Source: JBFMHD01 sp040752395 [NCBI: Candidatus Hydrogenedentota bacterium] (GTDB taxonomy: Bacteria > JBFMHD01). From it: a DNA stretch of 5,704 bases. Made by a program: the position numbers and the translations under genes. The notes under the pieces are model-generated. The model ran no database searches, was not told the DNA's origin, and was given only the letters and a program-made list of their open reading frames with translations. Shown here piece after piece: positions 1 to 5,507 of the stretch; the stretch's first letter is position 1, and the number at the start of each line of letters is the position of its first letter. Location: contig JBFMHD010000180.1 in the NCBI GenBank assembly GCA_040752395.1, positions 1-5,704 on the forward strand, in the 5' to 3' direction.

Positions 1-3000
1 ATAAGGATGCTATCATTTACGAACTTCACGTGAAATCGTTTTTTGATAGTGTAGATGACGGCATCGGTGATTTTCGCGGGCTTATACAAAAACTCGATTA
101 TCTTGAGGGATTAGGGATAAACTGTATTTGGCTCCTACCATTTTATCCTTCCCCACTTAAAGATGACGGGTATGACATAAGTGATTATTTTAACATTCAT
201 TCCTCTTATGGCGCACTCCGTGATTTTCGCCTGTTTTTAAAACAAGCACACCGTCGTAACATGCGAGTTATTACTGAACTTGTATTAAACCATACTTCAG
301 ACCAGCATTTATGGTTTCAGCGTGCACGGTCTGCTCCCCCAGGCTCTATTTACAGAGATTATTATGTATGGAGCGATACCCCGGATAAATATAAGGATGC
401 AAGGATAATCTTCAAGGATTTTGAAAACTCTAACTGGAGCTGGGACCCTGTAGCAAAATCATACTACTGGCATCGGTTTTATTCGCATCAGCCAGATTTG
501 AATTTTGACAACCGTGATGTACAGAGGGAGATATTTAATATTATAGATTTCTGGTTTAAAACCGGGGTTGACGGACTTCGATTAGACGCTGTACCATATC
601 TTTTCGAAGAGGAAGGGACGAACTGCGAGAATTTACCAAAAACGCATTTGTTTTTAAAAAACTTGCGAAAACATATTGATAAAAAATTTAAAAATAGAAT
701 GCTTCTCGCCGAAGCAAACCAGTGGCCTGAAGATTCAGCAAAATATTTCGGTTCGGGTGACGAATGCCATATGGCGTTTCATTTCCCGATTATGCCGCGT
801 ATGTTTATGGCTGTTCAAATGGAAGACAGTTTCCCTATTATAGATATTTTTGAACAAACTCCCCAAATACCTGAAAATTCTCAATGGGCTCTTTTCCTGC
901 GTAACCACGATGAACTGACGCTCGAAATGGTGACAGAGGAAGAAAGGGATTATATGTATCGGGCTTATGCACAAGACTCACGAGCAAAAATTAATCTTGG
1001 TATCAGAAGACGGCTTGCACCTTTACTGAATAATAACCGAAAAAAAATAGAACTTCTTAACATATTACTCTTTTCTCTCCCCGGCACACCGGTTATTTAC
1101 TATGGTGATGAAATCGGTATGGGTGATAATTATCATCTTGGTGACCGTAATGGCGTTCGCACGCCGATGCAATGGAGCCCGGATAGAAATGCTGGCTTCT
1201 CCCGGGCTAACCCTCAAAATCTATATCTCCCTCTAATCATTGACCCTGAATACCATTATGAAGCAATTAATGTTGAAAATCAGGAAAAAAATCTATCATC
1301 ACTTCTCTGGTGGATGAAACGGGTTATTGCTATGAGAAAAAAATTTAAAGCTTTCAGTAGAGGAGATATTTCTTTCGTCTCCACTAATAATCCTAAAATT
1401 CTCGCATTTAGCCGTAAATTTCAGGACGAGATTATATTAATAGTCATAAACCTATCGAGGTTTTCTCAGGTCGTAGACTTAGGCCTCTCTCAATTCGCAG
1501 GTTTTGTCCCAGAAGAAGTGTTTAGCCAGAACAAGTTCCCACCTATTAGAAATTCACCCTATACTTTAATTCTTGGTTCTTACAATACTCACTGGCTATT
1601 ATTGACTGCTGTTAACGAAAAAATAGAATTACATAGAGAAGCTATTTTAAAAAAGTTAGTTCCTGAAATTACTATAAAACGACACCAGCTAAATTTTCAA
1701 GATAGGGAATTTAAAAATATTATACAGAAGATTATCCCTGATTATTTAAAAAAAGTTCAATGGTTCACAAACCGTTTTAAGACTATCTATAAAATCAGGA
1801 TTGTTGACCAGATAAACATTGTTAAAAATACCTGTATTTTTATCTTCGAAATCGGTTTCACTGAAGGCCCCCCTGAACTGTATCTCATCCCTGTCTCTAT
1901 TGTTTCAAAAAGCGATGGCCTTAAGCTTCAGGAAGAAGACCAGAACAGCATCATTGCAAAACTTCTGCCCGGTAAAAGAGAATACTTTTTATGCGATGCT
2001 TTTTACGATGAAAAGTTCCGCAAGTCTCTTTTATCAATTATCTTAAAAGAAAAGAAAATAAAAGGTGAAAAAGGAGAAATTATACCACACCTTAAAAAAA
2101 ATAATAAAAACTTCATCACTGATAACTCATTACTATTATCCTCAACAATTTTAAAAAGCAAACAGCATAATGCTTTAATAACTTACGGTACTGAACTGCT
2201 CCTGAAATCTTTCCGTCGCCTCGATTATGGGCTTAATCCTGAACTTGAAATTGAAAGAATTTTGAAATTTTCAAATATACCACAATATGCAGGAAGTATT
2301 GAATACAACCAGGGAAAAGAATTAAATATTACGCTATGTGTGTTATCAAAACTTATCCCGCACCAGGGTGATGTATGGTCATATACCTTAGACGCAGTAA
2401 GCAGGTTTTATAGTCATACGCTCTCAAAAAAACAGGAGATTAAGATAATCCCAAAAATATCAGGTGTATTTTCAAGGGTAGACTCTATTCCACAAAACAT
2501 AGAGGAGCTAATCAGAACGACTTTCCTTGGTATGATAAAGTTATTAGGGATACGCACTGCGGAATTACATTTAGCACTTACTTCTGTTTCAGATAATCCT
2601 GATTTTGTGCCTGAACATTTTTCAATGCTCTACCAGCGCTCGGTTTATCAATCAATGCGAAACCAGACCCGTAGAGCGTTCAGTTTACTCTTAAAAAATA
2701 TAAATGATCTGCCGCGGGATATACAGGATGACGCACAGTTTGTATTAAAATCAGAAAAAAATATCATCAACTATTTCCAAAAAATATATCAGAATAAATT
2801 ATCAGTATTAAAAATGCGAATACACGGGAACTATCATCTTGAGCAGATTCTTTTTACAGGTAAGGATTTTATCATTGCGGATTTTGAAGGAGATACAACA
2901 CGACCGATTAGTGAGCGCCGATTGAAACGTTCCCCACTCCGTGATATCGCGGGTATAATCCGTTCGTTTCATTATGTTGCACTTAAGGTTCTTTATCAGC

Positions 3001-3275
3001 ATCCATCTATCAGGAAGGAAGATATGGACTATCTTGAAGATTGGGCTAACATCTGGTGGTATTATGTAAGCAACGCTTTCCTTAAATCATATATAGATAC
3101 CATAAAGGATAAACCGATTGTTCCAGAACAGAAAGATGAGTTCGACCTTTTGCTTAATCTCTTTATTTTGAATAAAGCAATCTACGAACTCGAATACGAA
3201 CTCATCAACCGTTCCAGCTGGGTAATTATCCCGATTAAAGGCATCAAGCATTTTATAGAAAACTATTTAACCTGA
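1..3275 (+). CDS. treS: Trehalose synthase / maltokinase fusion (TreS-Mak), 5' end outside window
   Basis: This is a bifunctional cytoplasmic enzyme of trehalose/alpha-glucan metabolism. The GH13 part isomerises maltose and trehalose; the kinase-like part would phosphorylate maltose with ATP, feeding GlgE. About 1,090 codons are visible, numbered here from the first whole codon at base 3. The frame is open to base 1 and reads KDAIIYELHVKSFFDS, the usual TreS N-terminus, so the GTG at base 30 is internal and a short N-terminal piece is missing. GH13 motifs are intact: TELVLNHTS (His97), GLRLDAVPYL (nucleophile Asp195), LLAEANQWPED (acid/base Glu237), FLRNHDELTLEM (His302-Asp303), then GDRNGVRTPMQWSPDRNAGF. 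A beta C-domain and linker follow to about residue 640. The kinase region has LLLKSFRRLDYGLNPELEIE (ATP-site Lys735), HGNYHLEQ (941-948), DFEG (Asp960) and SERRLKRSPLRDIAG. Oddity: the family's HGD catalytic Asp is Asn943, so kinase activity is uncertain. The TGA stop is at 3273-3275. No promoter is visible. The TreS call is near certain; maltokinase activity is inferred. Confidence 0.96.
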   Translation, partial: KDAIIYELHVKSFFDSVDDGIGDFRGLIQKLDYLEGLGINCIWLLPFYPSPLKDDGYDISDYFNIHSSYGALRDFRLFLKQAHRRNMRVITELVLNHTSDQHLWFQRARSAPPGSIYRDYYVWSDTPDKYKDARIIFKDFENSNWSWDPVAKSYYWHRFYSHQPDLNFDNRDVQREIFNIIDFWFKTGVDGLRLDAVPYLFEEEGTNCENLPKTHLFLKNLRKHIDKKFKNRMLLAEANQWPEDSAKYFGSGDECHMAFHFPIMPRMFMAVQMEDSFPIIDIFEQTPQIPENSQWALFLRNHDELTLEMVTEEERDYMYRAYAQDSRAKINLGIRRRLAPLLNNNRKKIELLNILLFSLPGTPVIYYGDEIGMGDNYHLGDRNGVRTPMQWSPDRNAGFSRANPQNLYLPLIIDPEYHYEAINVENQEKNLSSLLWWMKRVIAMRKKFKAFSRGDISFVSTNNPKILAFSRKFQDEIILIVINLSRFSQVVDLGLSQFAGFVPEEVFSQNKFPPIRNSPYTLILGSYNTHWLLLTAVNEKIELHREAILKKLVPEITIKRHQLNFQDREFKNIIQKIIPDYLKKVQWFTNRFKTIYKIRIVDQINIVKNTCIFIFEIGFTEGPPELYLIPVSIVSKSDGLKLQEEDQNSIIAKLLPGKREYFLCDAFYDEKFRKSLLSIILKEKKIKGEKGEIIPHLKKNNKNFITDNSLLLSSTILKSKQHNALITYGTELLLKSFRRLDYGLNPELEIERILKFSNIPQYAGSIEYNQGKELNITLCVLSKLIPHQGDVWSYTLDAVSRFYSHTLSKKQEIKIIPKISGVFSRVDSIPQNIEELIRTTFLGMIKLLGIRTAELHLALTSVSDNPDFVPEHFSMLYQRSVYQSMRNQTRRAFSLLLKNINDLPRDIQDDAQFVLKSEKNIINYFQKIYQNKLSVLKMRIHGNYHLEQILFTGKDFIIADFEGDTTRPISERRLKRSPLRDIAGIIRSFHYVALKVLYQHPSIRKEDMDYLEDWANIWWYYVSNAFLKSYIDTIKDKPIVPEQKDEFDLLLNLFILNKAIYELEYELINRSSWVIIPIKGIKHFIENYLT

Positions 3276-3514
3276 CCGCTATGTAGGTAGTCAAGTCTAA
3301 TGTTGTTTCATATCACGAAATGCATTCTCTAAACTCTAGCGACCTGATATTCGGGTTAACACATCTTCAATGGATAGATTTATATCAGTGCAGAAGAAAC
3401 AAGTAATCCCTTTCTTGTTCGGATATTTTACAATGAATACTCGTATTATCGAACCAGCTGGTTTCCAATATGCTGTAAATGTCTGCAACGAAATAGTAAC
3501 TTTTTTACGAATGA
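3276..3514. other. Spacer downstream of treS without a recognisable gene
   Basis: Nothing here is recognisable as a gene, and no clear stem-plus-U-tract terminator follows the treS stop. The longest forward frame is 3370-3528 (ATG, 52 codons, no Shine-Dalgarno, no family I recognise). It overlaps the start of the transposase remnant in another frame. The stretch may be the more decayed upstream part of that transposase or its insertion flank, but I could not match its translations to IS91 motifs, so that is inference only. Confidence 0.4.
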
Positions 3515-3794
3515 ACCGAAATATTTGACCCCTTAGATTTTCTTGCAGCCGTAACTCAGCATATCCCCAACAAGGGCGACCACCTCATCAATTACTATGG
3601 GTGGTATTCAAATAAGTCTCGAGGAATGAGACGCAAACAGTCTGCTGTCTATATACCGCTGCAACTTCAAAATCAGGATGAGCAGGATATTTCAACCAAA
3701 CAAGCAAAAATGTCCTGGGCAGCACGCAGTCCACCATTGCCTGAAGAATAGGAGAGAAAATTATCTTGTTCCAGTTGTAGGAAGTGGAATGTAG
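3515..3794 (+). pseudogene. IS91-family (Y2) transposase, C-terminal remnant with stops and frameshift
   Basis: This is a decayed piece of an IS91-type rolling-circle transposase. The frame beginning at 3515, directly after a TGA at 3512-3514, reads EIFDPLDFLAAVTQHIPNKG followed by a YYGWYSNKSRGMRRK segment. Those are the family's conserved block between the catalytic region and the C-terminal zinc finger. Then comes STKQAKMSWAA, matching the usual ...MxWAxLI... segment. The frame is broken by TAG at 3749-3751. It continues in the same frame to CSSC (3767-3778), equivalent to the family's CPKCG finger. A shift to the next frame gives GSGM, TAG (3792-3794) and RII, matching the usual G..MRII end. 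The catalytic Tyr/His region is absent, so the fragment cannot be active. No IS91 terminal sequences were recognised. The family call rests on motif memory, not a search. Confidence 0.72.
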
Positions 3795-3912: not shown

Positions 3913-3941
3913 TTGACAAAAAGTAATATTATTTGTATAAT
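3913..3941 (+). promoter_or_regulatory. Consensus sigma-70-type promoter for the DUF4143 ATPase gene
   Basis: There is an exact TTGACA at 3913-3918, a 17-base spacer, and an exact TATAAT at 3936-3941, which is the textbook vegetative promoter with optimal spacing. A second TATAAT overlaps at 3941-3946, but its 22-base spacing is poor. Transcription would be expected to start about seven bases after the -10 box, at or next to base 3948, which is the A of the ATG. No Shine-Dalgarno sequence lies between, so the mRNA is predicted to be leaderless. No operator-like palindrome overlaps the promoter. Confidence 0.85.
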
Positions 3942-3947
3942 ATAATT

Positions 3948-5117
3948 ATGATTAAACCCAGATTAATCTTAGGGAAGATTAAACCCTATCTTCTTTTACC
4001 TGAAGCAATTATTATTACCGGAATGAGACAAACAGGTAAAACTACACTCTTAAATTATATCTATGACCAGATTAATTCTCGTAATAAAATTTTCTTAGAC
4101 CTTGAAAACCCTTTAAATAGGAGGTATTTTGAAGAGACAAACTATGAAAGGATAAAAAAAACCTTAGAGGTTTTGGGTATAGATTTTACTAAACAAGCCT
4201 TTATATTTTGTGATGAGATTCACTTTGTAAGGAATCTACCTTCTGTAGTTAAATATTTTATTGACCACTATAAAGTAAAGTTTTTCCTCACTGGTTCAGC
4301 CAGTTTCTACTTAAAGAACCTTTTTACCGAGTCTCTTTCTGGGAGAAAATACATCTTTGAGCTTTTTCCGCTTACCTTTGGTGAATTTCTTCTGTTTAAG
4401 GATGTAACTTTAAAGATACCACAAGAAGCAAAAGATATTACCCCTTCAATCTTTGAGACTATCTCCTGCTGGTATGAAGAATATATTTTATTTGGTGGAT
4501 TTCCTGGTGTAGTTTTAAAAACAAATCCTTCTGAAAAGAAGAAGATGCTTGAGGAAATTTTTACCTCCTTCTATCAATTAGAAGTAAGACAAATAGGAGA
4601 TTTTCGCAAGAATGAAATAATCAGGGATTTAATCTTACTTTTGATGCAACGCGTTGGCTTTAAATTAGATATTCAAAGGCTTTCCAAAGAATTAAGGATT
4701 TCTCGCCTCACCCTGAATGAATATATCTCTTTTCTTGAAGGGACTTATTTTATAAAAAGGGTCCGGCCTTTTAGTCAAGGTAAAGATACAGAGATCAGGA
4801 AGATGCCCAAGGTTTATCTTTGTGATAGTGGTCTTTGTAATCATTTTGCCAGATTAGATATGGGTGTTATTTTTGAAAATAGTGTTTTCCAAAATTTAAG
4901 GACAAAAGGCGAGATTAATTATTACCAGAGAAAAAGCGGGACAGAAATTGATTTTATCCTGAATAAAAAAGAGGCATATGAGGTAAAATTAACGCCGCAA
5001 GCCCCTGATTTAAGAAAACTAAAGGAGGTAGGAGACAAACTAAAATTAGAAAGCTCTAACATCATCTGCAAAAACTACTCTGAACTAAGTGATATTATCT
5101 ATGCCTTTATGTTATAA
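3948..5117 (+). CDS. AAA+ ATPase with C-terminal DUF4143 domain
   Basis: The predicted protein is 389 residues and cytoplasmic; its biological role is not established. The N-terminal AAA_14-type domain has Walker A GMRQTGKT (residues 25-32), Walker B IFCDE (Asp89-Glu90) and a sensor-like strand FFLTGSAS (112-119). The family segment SGRKYIFELFPLTFGEFL (131-148) follows. The DUF4143 part begins around residue 205 and has a winged-helix-like stretch (about 240-265). It ends in a PD-(D/E)XK-like arrangement, EIDF (Asp335) ... EVK (Glu345, Lys347), as is common in this family; nuclease activity is not demonstrated. Length is normal and the frame is unbroken. ATG at 3948 is preferred over the in-frame TTG at 3933, because the TTG lies between the promoter boxes and would add only five residues. 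The gene stands alone with its own promoter. Arg codons are 17 AGA/AGG of 22, unlike treS, which suggests separate origin. Confidence is high for family, low for function. Confidence 0.93.
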   Translation: MIKPRLILGKIKPYLLLPEAIIITGMRQTGKTTLLNYIYDQINSRNKIFLDLENPLNRRYFEETNYERIKKTLEVLGIDFTKQAFIFCDEIHFVRNLPSVVKYFIDHYKVKFFLTGSASFYLKNLFTESLSGRKYIFELFPLTFGEFLLFKDVTLKIPQEAKDITPSIFETISCWYEEYILFGGFPGVVLKTNPSEKKKMLEEIFTSFYQLEVRQIGDFRKNEIIRDLILLLMQRVGFKLDIQRLSKELRISRLTLNEYISFLEGTYFIKRVRPFSQGKDTEIRKMPKVYLCDSGLCNHFARLDMGVIFENSVFQNLRTKGEINYYQRKSGTEIDFILNKKEAYEVKLTPQAPDLRKLKEVGDKLKLESSNIICKNYSELSDIIYAFML

Positions 5118-5332
5118 TTTTGCCATTATGCTATAGCCGAAATGGTGAGAAAAAGCAGTTTGGGGACTTTACGATATCTTTGTTAGAGCAAAACTACCTA
5201 AAGAATTGATGACTTTCACCCCACCTTATGATATACTTATTACAATGTCGAAAGGGATGAGAGAGAGCTTTATATACTGCTCCCCTGAAACGTGAGACAC
5301 TTTAAAGGGGGAGGAAAAGAGGCACAAAGGCA

Positions 5333-5375
5333 CAAAGTGACACAGACACAAAGTTTTTTCTTGTGTGTGTCTTTG
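5333..5375. repeat. Imperfect hairpin repeat of CACAAA/TTGTGT units
   Basis: Two tandem GGCACAAA units (5321-5328, 5329-5336) lead into an arm that pairs with TTGTGTGTGTCTTTG (5361-5375). The paired segments are 5346-5351 with 5361-5366, 5339-5343 with 5367-5371, and 5333-5336 with 5372-5375, 15 pairs in all. They are separated by 2-base bulges and closed by a loop containing six T. Outside it, a G/A-rich block (about 5301-5315) is loosely complementary to a C/T-rich block (about 5421-5434), so the hairpin may be the core of a longer decayed inverted repeat. The U-run lies in the loop, not after the stem, so it is not a normal terminator. Confidence 0.5.
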
Positions 5376-5408
5376 CCTGCCTGCCGCACCGAGCGCGGCG
5401 CAGGCAGA
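5376..5408. repeat. 33-bp G+C-rich palindrome flanked by 8-bp direct repeats
   Basis: The element forms an 11-bp stem: CTGCCT (5377-5382) with AGGCAG (5402-5407), and GCCGC (5383-5387) with GCGGC (5395-5399). It has a 7-base loop (5388-5394) and a GC bulge at 5400-5401. It is strikingly G+C-rich within AT-rich surroundings. The octamer TGTCTTTG occurs exactly on both sides (5368-5375 and 5409-5416), like a target-site duplication. It resembles the CCTGCC/GGCAGG small palindromes dispersed in some uncultivated bacterial genomes (from memory, not searched). It codes for nothing. Confidence 0.6.
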
Positions 5409-5507
5409 TGTCTTTGATACCTCCTCCCTAAATTTTTTGTAAAATATAATATATCTTTTTCTCCTTTTATTATAAACACAATTTTTGGGTCTTTCGTAAT
5501 TAAGTTG

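What the first reader, a model, noticed from the sequence alone, without database searches (positions are those of the whole stretch)
2823..2846. Maltokinase domain of the TreS fusion has HGN instead of the catalytic HGD
The Mak/Pep2 kinase loop is normally HGDYHLGQ; here it reads HGNYHLEQ, with AAC at 2829-2831 and GAG at 2841-2843. The Asp is the expected catalytic base by homology to aminoglycoside-phosphotransferase-type kinases. Both changes fit single G-to-A transitions. The metal-site Gln948, DFEG Asp960, ATP-site Lys735 and the SERRLKRSPLRD segment are kept, and the frame is intact. The fold may therefore be retained without, or with reduced, phosphoryl transfer: a pseudokinase-like partner for TreS, or an early step of decay.
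Basis: partly seen in the sequence, partly recalled or inferred. Interest (0 to 1): 0.62.

Follow-up and report, generated by a model that had tools for sequence, protein, structure and literature searches.

The report
TreS fusion with silenced maltokinase domain
A bacterial two-part sugar enzyme keeps a well-folded kinase half whose phosphate-transfer residues are gone; related bacteria have lost such residues repeatedly, mostly where the enzyme that uses the kinase's product is missing.

Summary
A trehalose synthase-maltokinase (TreS-Mak) fusion reads HGNYHLEQ at 2823-2846, with Asn at the putative catalytic base. The frame is open, the TreS catalytic residues are kept, and the Mak domain models confidently as a maltokinase fold.

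It is not unique. Of 108 aligned domains, 7 lack the Asp (6 Asn, 1 Ala); 6 of these also have a changed P-loop, against 3 of 101 with Asp. A single origin is rejected. In one lineage two species share the loss and the domain is under purifying selection. Active-site changes occur in 16 of 28 copies from genomes without GlgE, the user of maltose 1-phosphate, and 2 of 74 with it (tree-aware p about 0.001).

Best reading: a silenced kinase domain kept as part of TreS, probably after loss of GlgE. GlgE cannot be checked in the window's genome; no activity was measured.

The parts
3..3275 (+). TreS-Mak fusion gene (5' end cut off by the window edge; stop codon 3273-3275)
   Evidence: Open frame of 1090 codons; TIGR02456 and TIGR02457 above cut-off
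3..1604 (+). TreS (maltose alpha-D-glucosyltransferase) domain, aa 1-534; GH13 catalytic residues D195, E237, D303 present
   Evidence: TIGR02456 872.4 bits; the three residues are invariant in 43 of 43 aligned rows (their roles are recalled GH13 knowledge)
1680..3254 (+). Maltokinase-like domain, aa 560-1084
   Evidence: TIGR02457 423.4 bits; AlphaFold model mean pLDDT 89.9, best match M. smegmatis maltokinase 5jy7 Z 35.1, rmsd 2.8 over 430 residues
2160..2171 (+). P-loop KQHN (aa 720-723) where active Mak has EQSN: E134K and S136H
   Evidence: Ser136-equivalent to Ala in mycobacterial Mak costs 97% of activity (PMC4306142)
2205..2207 (+). K735, phosphate-binding Lys (K149), kept
   Evidence: K in 108 of 108 rows
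2823..2846 (+). Catalytic loop HGNYHLEQ (HGDYHLGQ in active Mak fusions)
2829..2831 (+). N943 in place of the putative catalytic base Asp305
   Evidence: Asp305 as putative base: PMC4306142
2841..2843 (+). E947 in place of Gly309
   Evidence: G in 87 of 90 rows
2844..2846 (+). Q948 (Mg-site Gln310), kept
   Evidence: role from PMC4306142
2880..2891 (+). DFEG with Mg-binding D960 (Asp322), kept
   Evidence: D in 108 of 108 rows; D339N in M. tuberculosis Mak abolishes activity
3174..3197 (+). Maltose-pocket residues K1058, Y1061, Y1065 (Lys413, Tyr416, Tyr420), kept
   Evidence: mutants nearly inactive in M. vanbaalenii Mak

Best explanation
The gene encodes a TreS-Mak fusion whose TreS half is probably active and whose maltokinase half is folded but catalytically silenced. 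It lacks the putative general base (Asp to Asn) and the Ser that contacts the gamma-phosphate (Ser to His), so maltose may still bind but would be phosphorylated little or not at all. The protein would act as a plain trehalose-maltose isomerase, with the old kinase domain kept as a structural or ligand-binding part. The likely cause, inferred from relatives, is loss of GlgE: without it maltose 1-phosphate is wasted ATP and may be toxic, so changes that silence the kinase while keeping the fold are tolerated or favoured. Shown here: the sequence changes, the predicted fold and retained TreS residues, recurrence in separate lineages, the GlgE association among relatives, and purifying selection in one lineage. 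Inferred: lack of activity, the order of events, and absence of GlgE in the window's organism.
For: Lesions at two separated active-site elements, one of which costs 97% activity when mutated to Ala (PMC4306142). Co-occurrence: P-loop changed in 6 of 7 Asp-less domains against 3 of 101 with Asp. Asp-less copies in G001, G051 (same phylum), G002, G003, G412 and G1139, the last on one 3,416,895-base contig that makes up practically the whole assembly, with a single TreS-Mak and no GlgE. GlgE in 1 of 6 genomes with an Asp-less copy against 72 of 94 others, Fisher p 0.005; the one exception, G412, has a second TreS-Mak with HGD and EQSN on the contig that holds its GlgE (domain matches 3.3 kb apart) and its HGN copy on another contig. 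Any change at ten active-site positions: 16 of 28 copies without GlgE in the genome, 2 of 74 with; 7 of 9 origins lie on GlgE-less branches making up 24% of tree length, p about 0.001. Dehalococcoidia series: L038 full GlgE, intact Mak; L063 only the C-terminal part of GlgE, intact Mak; its nearest sampled relative L074 no GlgE in the locus or genome, HGN..H. MalQ, another consumer of maltose, lies in the loci of L096/L100, L098, L099 and L127. dN/dS of the Asp-less domain 0.06 in its C-terminal part and 0.17 in its N-terminal part. A TreS-Mak plasmid gave no E. coli colonies without inducer, which the authors presume is due to toxic maltose 1-phosphate (PMC7935935).
Against: No activity data. 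Asp305 is only a putative base in the structural paper, and the ATP analogue's gamma-phosphate points away from it, so Asn might leave some activity. K149, N137, Q310, D322 and the maltose pocket are kept in the window. 12 of 28 GlgE-less copies have no change at the ten positions, so loss of GlgE does not force it. Strict independent pairs are too few: 6 pairs, median p 0.125 for any change; 3 pairs, median p 0.5 to 1, for loss of the Asp alone. GlgE and the upstream neighbours cannot be seen for the window. In the TreS tree the window groups with eight rows (seven of the phylum of G005, by L018's title Omnitrophota, and one Elusimicrobiota), all with intact loops, and 16 of 17 newly searched genomes of that phylum have GlgE, so by kinship alone GlgE would be expected. 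Frame-broken DNA lies directly downstream. Most genomes are MAGs, so a missing GlgE may be incompleteness; G002 is only 1.2 Mb.
Confidence: 0.66

Rival explanations
1. The Mak half is a weak but real maltokinase: Asn943 orients the substrate hydroxyl and another group takes the proton, so activity is reduced, not lost.
For: Lys, metal-site Gln and Asp, and the maltose pocket are kept in the window. In L127 D305N is the only change at the ten positions. The role of Asp305 is only putative.
Against: The window also carries S136H and E134K; S136A alone costs 97%. Asp-less copies in four lineages (the G001/G051 phylum, G002, G003, G1139) come from genomes without GlgE.
Confidence: 0.17
2. The kinase half has a new or regulatory job, such as a nucleotide or maltose sensor acting on TreS, or a different chemistry; the repeated Asn with His at the metal Gln would then be adaptive.
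For: Q310H accompanies D305N or D305A in three lineages (L053/L096, L074, L072). The ATP Lys and metal Asp are kept in 108 of 108 rows. Purifying selection in one lineage.
Against: The window keeps Gln310. L053, L096 and L072 also have changed maltose pockets, which suits a structural role better.
Confidence: 0.08
3. Early decay of the whole gene in the window's organism, with no retained role for the Mak half.
For: Frame-broken coding DNA lies just downstream; more than one active-site change is present.
Against: 1090 codons without a stop; Mak/TreS end-branch ratio 2.28, rank 32 of 43, inside the range of unaltered rows; TreS residues intact.
Confidence: 0.07
4. Assembly or sequencing error at 2829 and 2841.
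For: A single record without reads; no genome is held for it.
Against: Further in-frame changes lie about 660 bases away in the P-loop; the same Asn occurs in other species, one on a contig of practically a whole genome.
Confidence: 0.02

Closest known systems
TreS-Mak (TreS-Pep2) fusion enzymes, e.g. Estrella lausannensis and Pseudomonas aeruginosa
   Same: Domain order, TIGR02456 plus TIGR02457 in the window, TreS residues, metal and maltose-pocket residues
   Different: Those two have been shown to phosphorylate maltose (PMC7935935, passages; PMC11046441, passages); here the catalytic Asp and the P-loop Glu and Ser are replaced. Their sequences were not aligned here
Mycobacterial maltokinase Mak/Pep2 (PDB 4u94, 5jy7, 4o7o)
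   Same: Predicted fold (Z 30 to 35); K149, N137, Q310, D322, K413, Y416, Y420 equivalents
   Different: HGN for HGD, KQHN for EQSN; fused to TreS
Pseudokinases of the protein-kinase-like fold (general concept, recalled)
   Same: Kinase fold kept, catalytic residues lost; in one lineage of this group the domain is kept under selection
   Different: A small-molecule kinase relative fused to its upstream enzyme; no paper in the library holds both 'maltokinase' and 'pseudokinase'

Membership tests
TreS-Mak fusion family (TIGR02456 + TIGR02457) | Both models above curated cut-off in one frame | tested here: met
   872.4 against 678.35 and 423.4 against 375.05 bits
Active maltokinase (Mak/Pep2) | HGD catalytic Asp (Asp305) | tested here: not met
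   Asn943; Asp in 101 of 108 rows
Active maltokinase (Mak/Pep2) | P-loop with the gamma-phosphate Ser (AEQSNTSV) | tested here: not met
   SKQHNAL; position 136 is S, N or T in 104 of 108 rows
Active maltokinase (Mak/Pep2) | Metal-binding Gln310 and Asp322 | tested here: met
   Q948 and D960
Active maltokinase (Mak/Pep2) | Maltose-pocket Lys413, Tyr416, Tyr420 | tested here: met
   K1058, Y1061, Y1065
Active maltokinase (Mak/Pep2) | Maltokinase fold (predicted model) | tested here: met
   Model pLDDT 89.9; 5jy7 Z 35.1 over 430 residues; glucosamine kinases score 29.5 to 31.8, so fold alone does not single out Mak
GlgE pathway component | GlgE in the same genome | not testable with these tools
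   No genome held for the window; the record begins inside TreS, and the only other gene called downstream is an AAA_14/DUF4143 ATPase
Pseudokinase | No measurable phosphoryl transfer | not testable with these tools
   Needs an assay
Pseudokinase | Domain kept under purifying selection despite lost catalytic residue | tested here: inconclusive
   Met in the G001/G051 pair; no relative close enough was found to test the window itself

The most novel reading that the evidence does not exclude
TreS-Mak fusions have repeatedly become 'TreS plus pseudo-maltokinase' enzymes: once GlgE is lost, making maltose 1-phosphate is harmful, so selection disables the kinase chemistry (often by Asp to Asn, several times with Gln to His at the metal site) while the domain is kept as an obligate part or ligand sensor of TreS.
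Probability: 0.5. Interest if true: 0.72.

Novelty: new variant of a known kind. Interest (0 to 1): 0.6.

Why it matters
TIGR02457 members are named putative maltokinases, and TreS-Mak genes are readily taken as evidence for maltose 1-phosphate and the GlgE route. If some are pseudokinases, such pathway predictions fail in those bacteria. The pattern also gives a testable case of a pathway with a toxic intermediate losing its last enzyme and then having its upstream kinase switched off several times while the protein domain is kept, which asks what a kinase domain does for TreS besides catalysis.

Tried and rejected
Sequencing error as the explanation: rejected because further in-frame changes exist and the same Asn occurs in other species. 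A single origin of the Asp-less domains: rejected by an AU test on 43 rows, five of them Asp-less (p 1.3e-63); the same test on 89 rows with six did not finish. How many origins well-supported branches force varies with the tree: 4 for seven altered rows, 3 (Mak alone) or 4 (TreS alone) for five Asp-less rows, 3 for six Asp-less rows. Faster evolution of the altered Mak domains relative to TreS: not seen (ranks 2, 12, 21, 27, 31, 32, 39 of 43, two of the seven, L001 and L007, still having the Asp). The pattern scan of 392 genomes of the phylum of G006 gave one hit (L123), which is chance: a 38-codon frame without Mak similarity. The first genome-contig scan, with the window alone, found no relative. 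A phage-labelled record matched (L006); it carries a stand-alone maltokinase with HGD and was left out of the counts. Independent-pair tests lack power. Inverted repeats downstream: two short overlapping palindromes, nothing of note.

Choices to know: the ten positions and tolerated residues (E/D; S/N/T) were set after seeing the table. Rows exclude L006 and two duplicates (L104 = L097, L114 = L018). In one search two of five control pairs (L035-L047, L008-L023) were too diverged for a usable dS. The tree-aware test is my own script (parsimony states, origins dropped at random by branch length); the window is not in it.

Full report
What is there. The window (5704 bases, G+C 36%) opens inside a TreS-Mak fusion gene that runs to 3275. 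Both halves score above the curated cut-offs of their models. The loop at 2823-2846 reads HGNYHLEQ exactly as reported, and alignment to three solved mycobacterial maltokinases puts Asn943 on the catalytic-loop Asp. From passages of PMC4306142: in M. vanbaalenii Mak, Asp305 of HGD is the putative base, Gln310 and Asp322 bind Mg, and the P-loop is AEQSNTSV; alanine at the P-loop Ser reduces activity by 97%, mutation of the neighbouring Asn (N145 in M. tuberculosis) or of the Mg-site Asp (D339N) abolishes it, and Lys413, Tyr416 and Tyr420 mutants are practically inactive. By these criteria the window has lost Asp305 and Ser136 (to His), has Glu134 replaced by Lys, and keeps Asn137, Lys149, Gln310, Asp322, Lys413, Tyr416 and Tyr420. 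The TreS half keeps the three GH13 catalytic positions, invariant in 43 of 43 rows (roles recalled).

Fold. AlphaFold on 47 aligned Mak domains with the window first gave mean pLDDT 89.9. The best solved matches are maltokinases: 5jy7 Z 35.1, rmsd 2.8 over 430 residues; 4u94 Z 33.2; 4o7o Z 30.3; glucosamine kinases score 29.5 to 31.8. The fold is kept; this says nothing about activity.

Recurrence. The genome scan returned 80 loci, the best of 587. With five plasmid records and one phage-labelled record, 3 of 86 lack the Asp: L053 and L074 (HGNYHLGH) and L072 (HGAYHLGH); L001 (Spirosoma plasmid) has HGDLQLDK and L007 HGDYRLPQ. A second genome of the same phylum as L053 (G051; only four genomes held) shares HGNYHLGH. 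A pattern scan for HGN of 400 genomes of the phylum of G002 gave G002 itself and G412; of 392 in the phylum of G006 one chance hit; of 297 in the phylum of G022 one true case, G1139. A protein search of 237 genomes of the phylum of G005 (Omnitrophota by L018's title) found 18 with a Mak domain, and all 18 keep the Asp. In 108 aligned rows the position is D 101, N 6, A 1; a P-loop departing from [ED]Q[SNT]N is found in 6 of 7 Asp-less rows and 3 of 101 others. The exception is L127 (G1139), with D305N and an intact P-loop. So the two lesions tend to travel together, which a chance error would not do.

Independent origins. On the full-length tree of 78 rows the altered rows are scattered (7 changes for 7 rows, at least 4 forced by well-supported branches; in the 89-row tree 6 changes for 6 Asp-less rows, at least 3 forced). 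Holding the five Asp-less rows of a 43-row set together is rejected. In the TreS tree the window lies in a supported set of nine rows, seven of the phylum of G005 and one Elusimicrobiota besides itself, all eight with intact loops. Its loss looks like a separate event on its own branch; the exact host is not known.

Selection. Between G001 and G051 the Asp-less Mak domain has dN 0.023, dS 0.358 (C-terminal 376 codons) and dN 0.057, dS 0.332 (N-terminal 198 codons, linker included); TreS 0.010, 0.315. Control pairs with the Asp give, for Mak, 0.016/0.394 (L014-L019), 0.048/0.202 (L061-L076) and 0.032/0.521 (L057-L077); the other two of five control pairs were too diverged for a usable dS. Mak/TreS end-branch ratios of altered rows lie inside the range of the rest. 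The silenced domain is being kept in that lineage. No such test was possible for the window.

Link with GlgE. GlgE (PF11896) was sought in 102 genomes (50, 34, 17, 1); two of these (G052, G053) have no TreS-Mak. Of the other 100, GlgE is present in 1 of 6 with an Asp-less copy and 72 of 94 without (Fisher p 0.005). The exception, G412, carries a second TreS-Mak with HGD and EQSN on the same contig as GlgE, the domain matches 3.3 kb apart, while its HGN copy lies on another contig beside an alpha-glucan phosphorylase gene. G002 also has a second copy with HGD, but no GlgE. Widening the view to ten active-site positions, 16 of 28 copies from GlgE-less genomes are changed against 2 of 74 from genomes with GlgE (p 1.8e-9 without regard to kinship). 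Nine of the 16 belong to one Geobacter-like clade with Tyr416 to His in the maltose pocket, so the count must be read on the tree: 7 of 9 origins fall on GlgE-less branches that hold 24% of tree length (p about 0.001). Strict independent pairs lean the same way (3.8 with, 0.1 against, 2.1 undecided of 6) but cannot reach significance. Against a simple rule, 12 of 28 GlgE-less copies show no change at these positions.

A suggestive series lies in Dehalococcoidia. L038: GlgP, GlgE, TreS-Mak (HGD), MalQ, GlgB, TreZ. L063, on a 2.3-Mb chromosome record: only about 250 C-terminal residues of GlgE remain (GLGE_C domain; no PF11896 in the genome), TreS-Mak still HGD, MalQ, GlgB, TreZ. L074, the nearest sampled relative of L063 with SH-aLRT 100: no GlgE, TreS-Mak HGN..H, MalQ, GlgB, GH57. 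This fits GlgE loss first, kinase loss second. MalQ also lies in the loci of L096/L100, L098 and L127, offering another fate for maltose.

Why silence it? In PMC7935935 (passages) a TreS-Mak plasmid gave no E. coli colonies without inducer, which the authors presume is due to toxic maltose 1-phosphate; [quoted passage not shown] TreS and maltokinase form a complex in mycobacteria, the kinase docking on the TreS beta-sandwich domains (PMC6509496, passages). A cell without GlgE could thus gain by disabling the kinase and still need the domain. This last step is inference.

Literature. Searches for 'maltokinase' with 'pseudokinase' (0 papers), for 'trehalose synthase', 'maltokinase', 'inactive', 'fusion' (1 review), and three related ones (9 of 9, 6 of 102 and 8 of 12 papers listed) showed no title or abstract start about inactive TreS-Mak domains. 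Only open-access papers are held, and I read passages of four papers, none whole.

Verdict. It is best read as a new, apparently recurrent variant of a known enzyme: TreS fused to a silenced maltokinase. Activity, GlgE status and read support for this very gene remain open.

Noticed in passing
window 3500-3780: Frame-broken coding remnant just downstream of TreS-Mak (peptide stretch around AVTQHIPNKGDHLINYYGWYSNKSRGMRRKQ); from recall it resembles the end of an IS91-type transposase (translated, not searched).
   Followed up: partly
window 3933-5117: Intact gene for an AAA_14 plus DUF4143 ATPase.
   Followed up: no
window 5290-5410: Repeat-like stretch with several CACAAAG/GACAC motifs next to a G+C-rich patch, in otherwise A+T-rich DNA.
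   Followed up: no
L040, L042, L043, L050, L057, L058, L067, L073, L077: Geobacter-like TreS-Mak copies, none with GlgE in the genome, keep HGD but have Tyr416 to His (seven of nine also Tyr420 changed) in the maltose pocket: possibly a kinase with another substrate.
   Followed up: partly
L001 3001-4554: Spirosoma oryzicola plasmid TreS-Mak has a heavily eroded Mak site (P-loop NRGY, HGDLQLDK, DFGG) and lies beside a trehalase gene treF.
   Followed up: partly
L063 3218-4201: Truncated GlgE gene (C-terminal part only) upstream of an intact TreS-Mak on a chromosome-size record.
   Followed up: yes
L006 1828-3417: An unverified record labelled phage carries a stand-alone maltokinase gene with HGD; it may be mislabelled bacterial DNA.
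   Followed up: no
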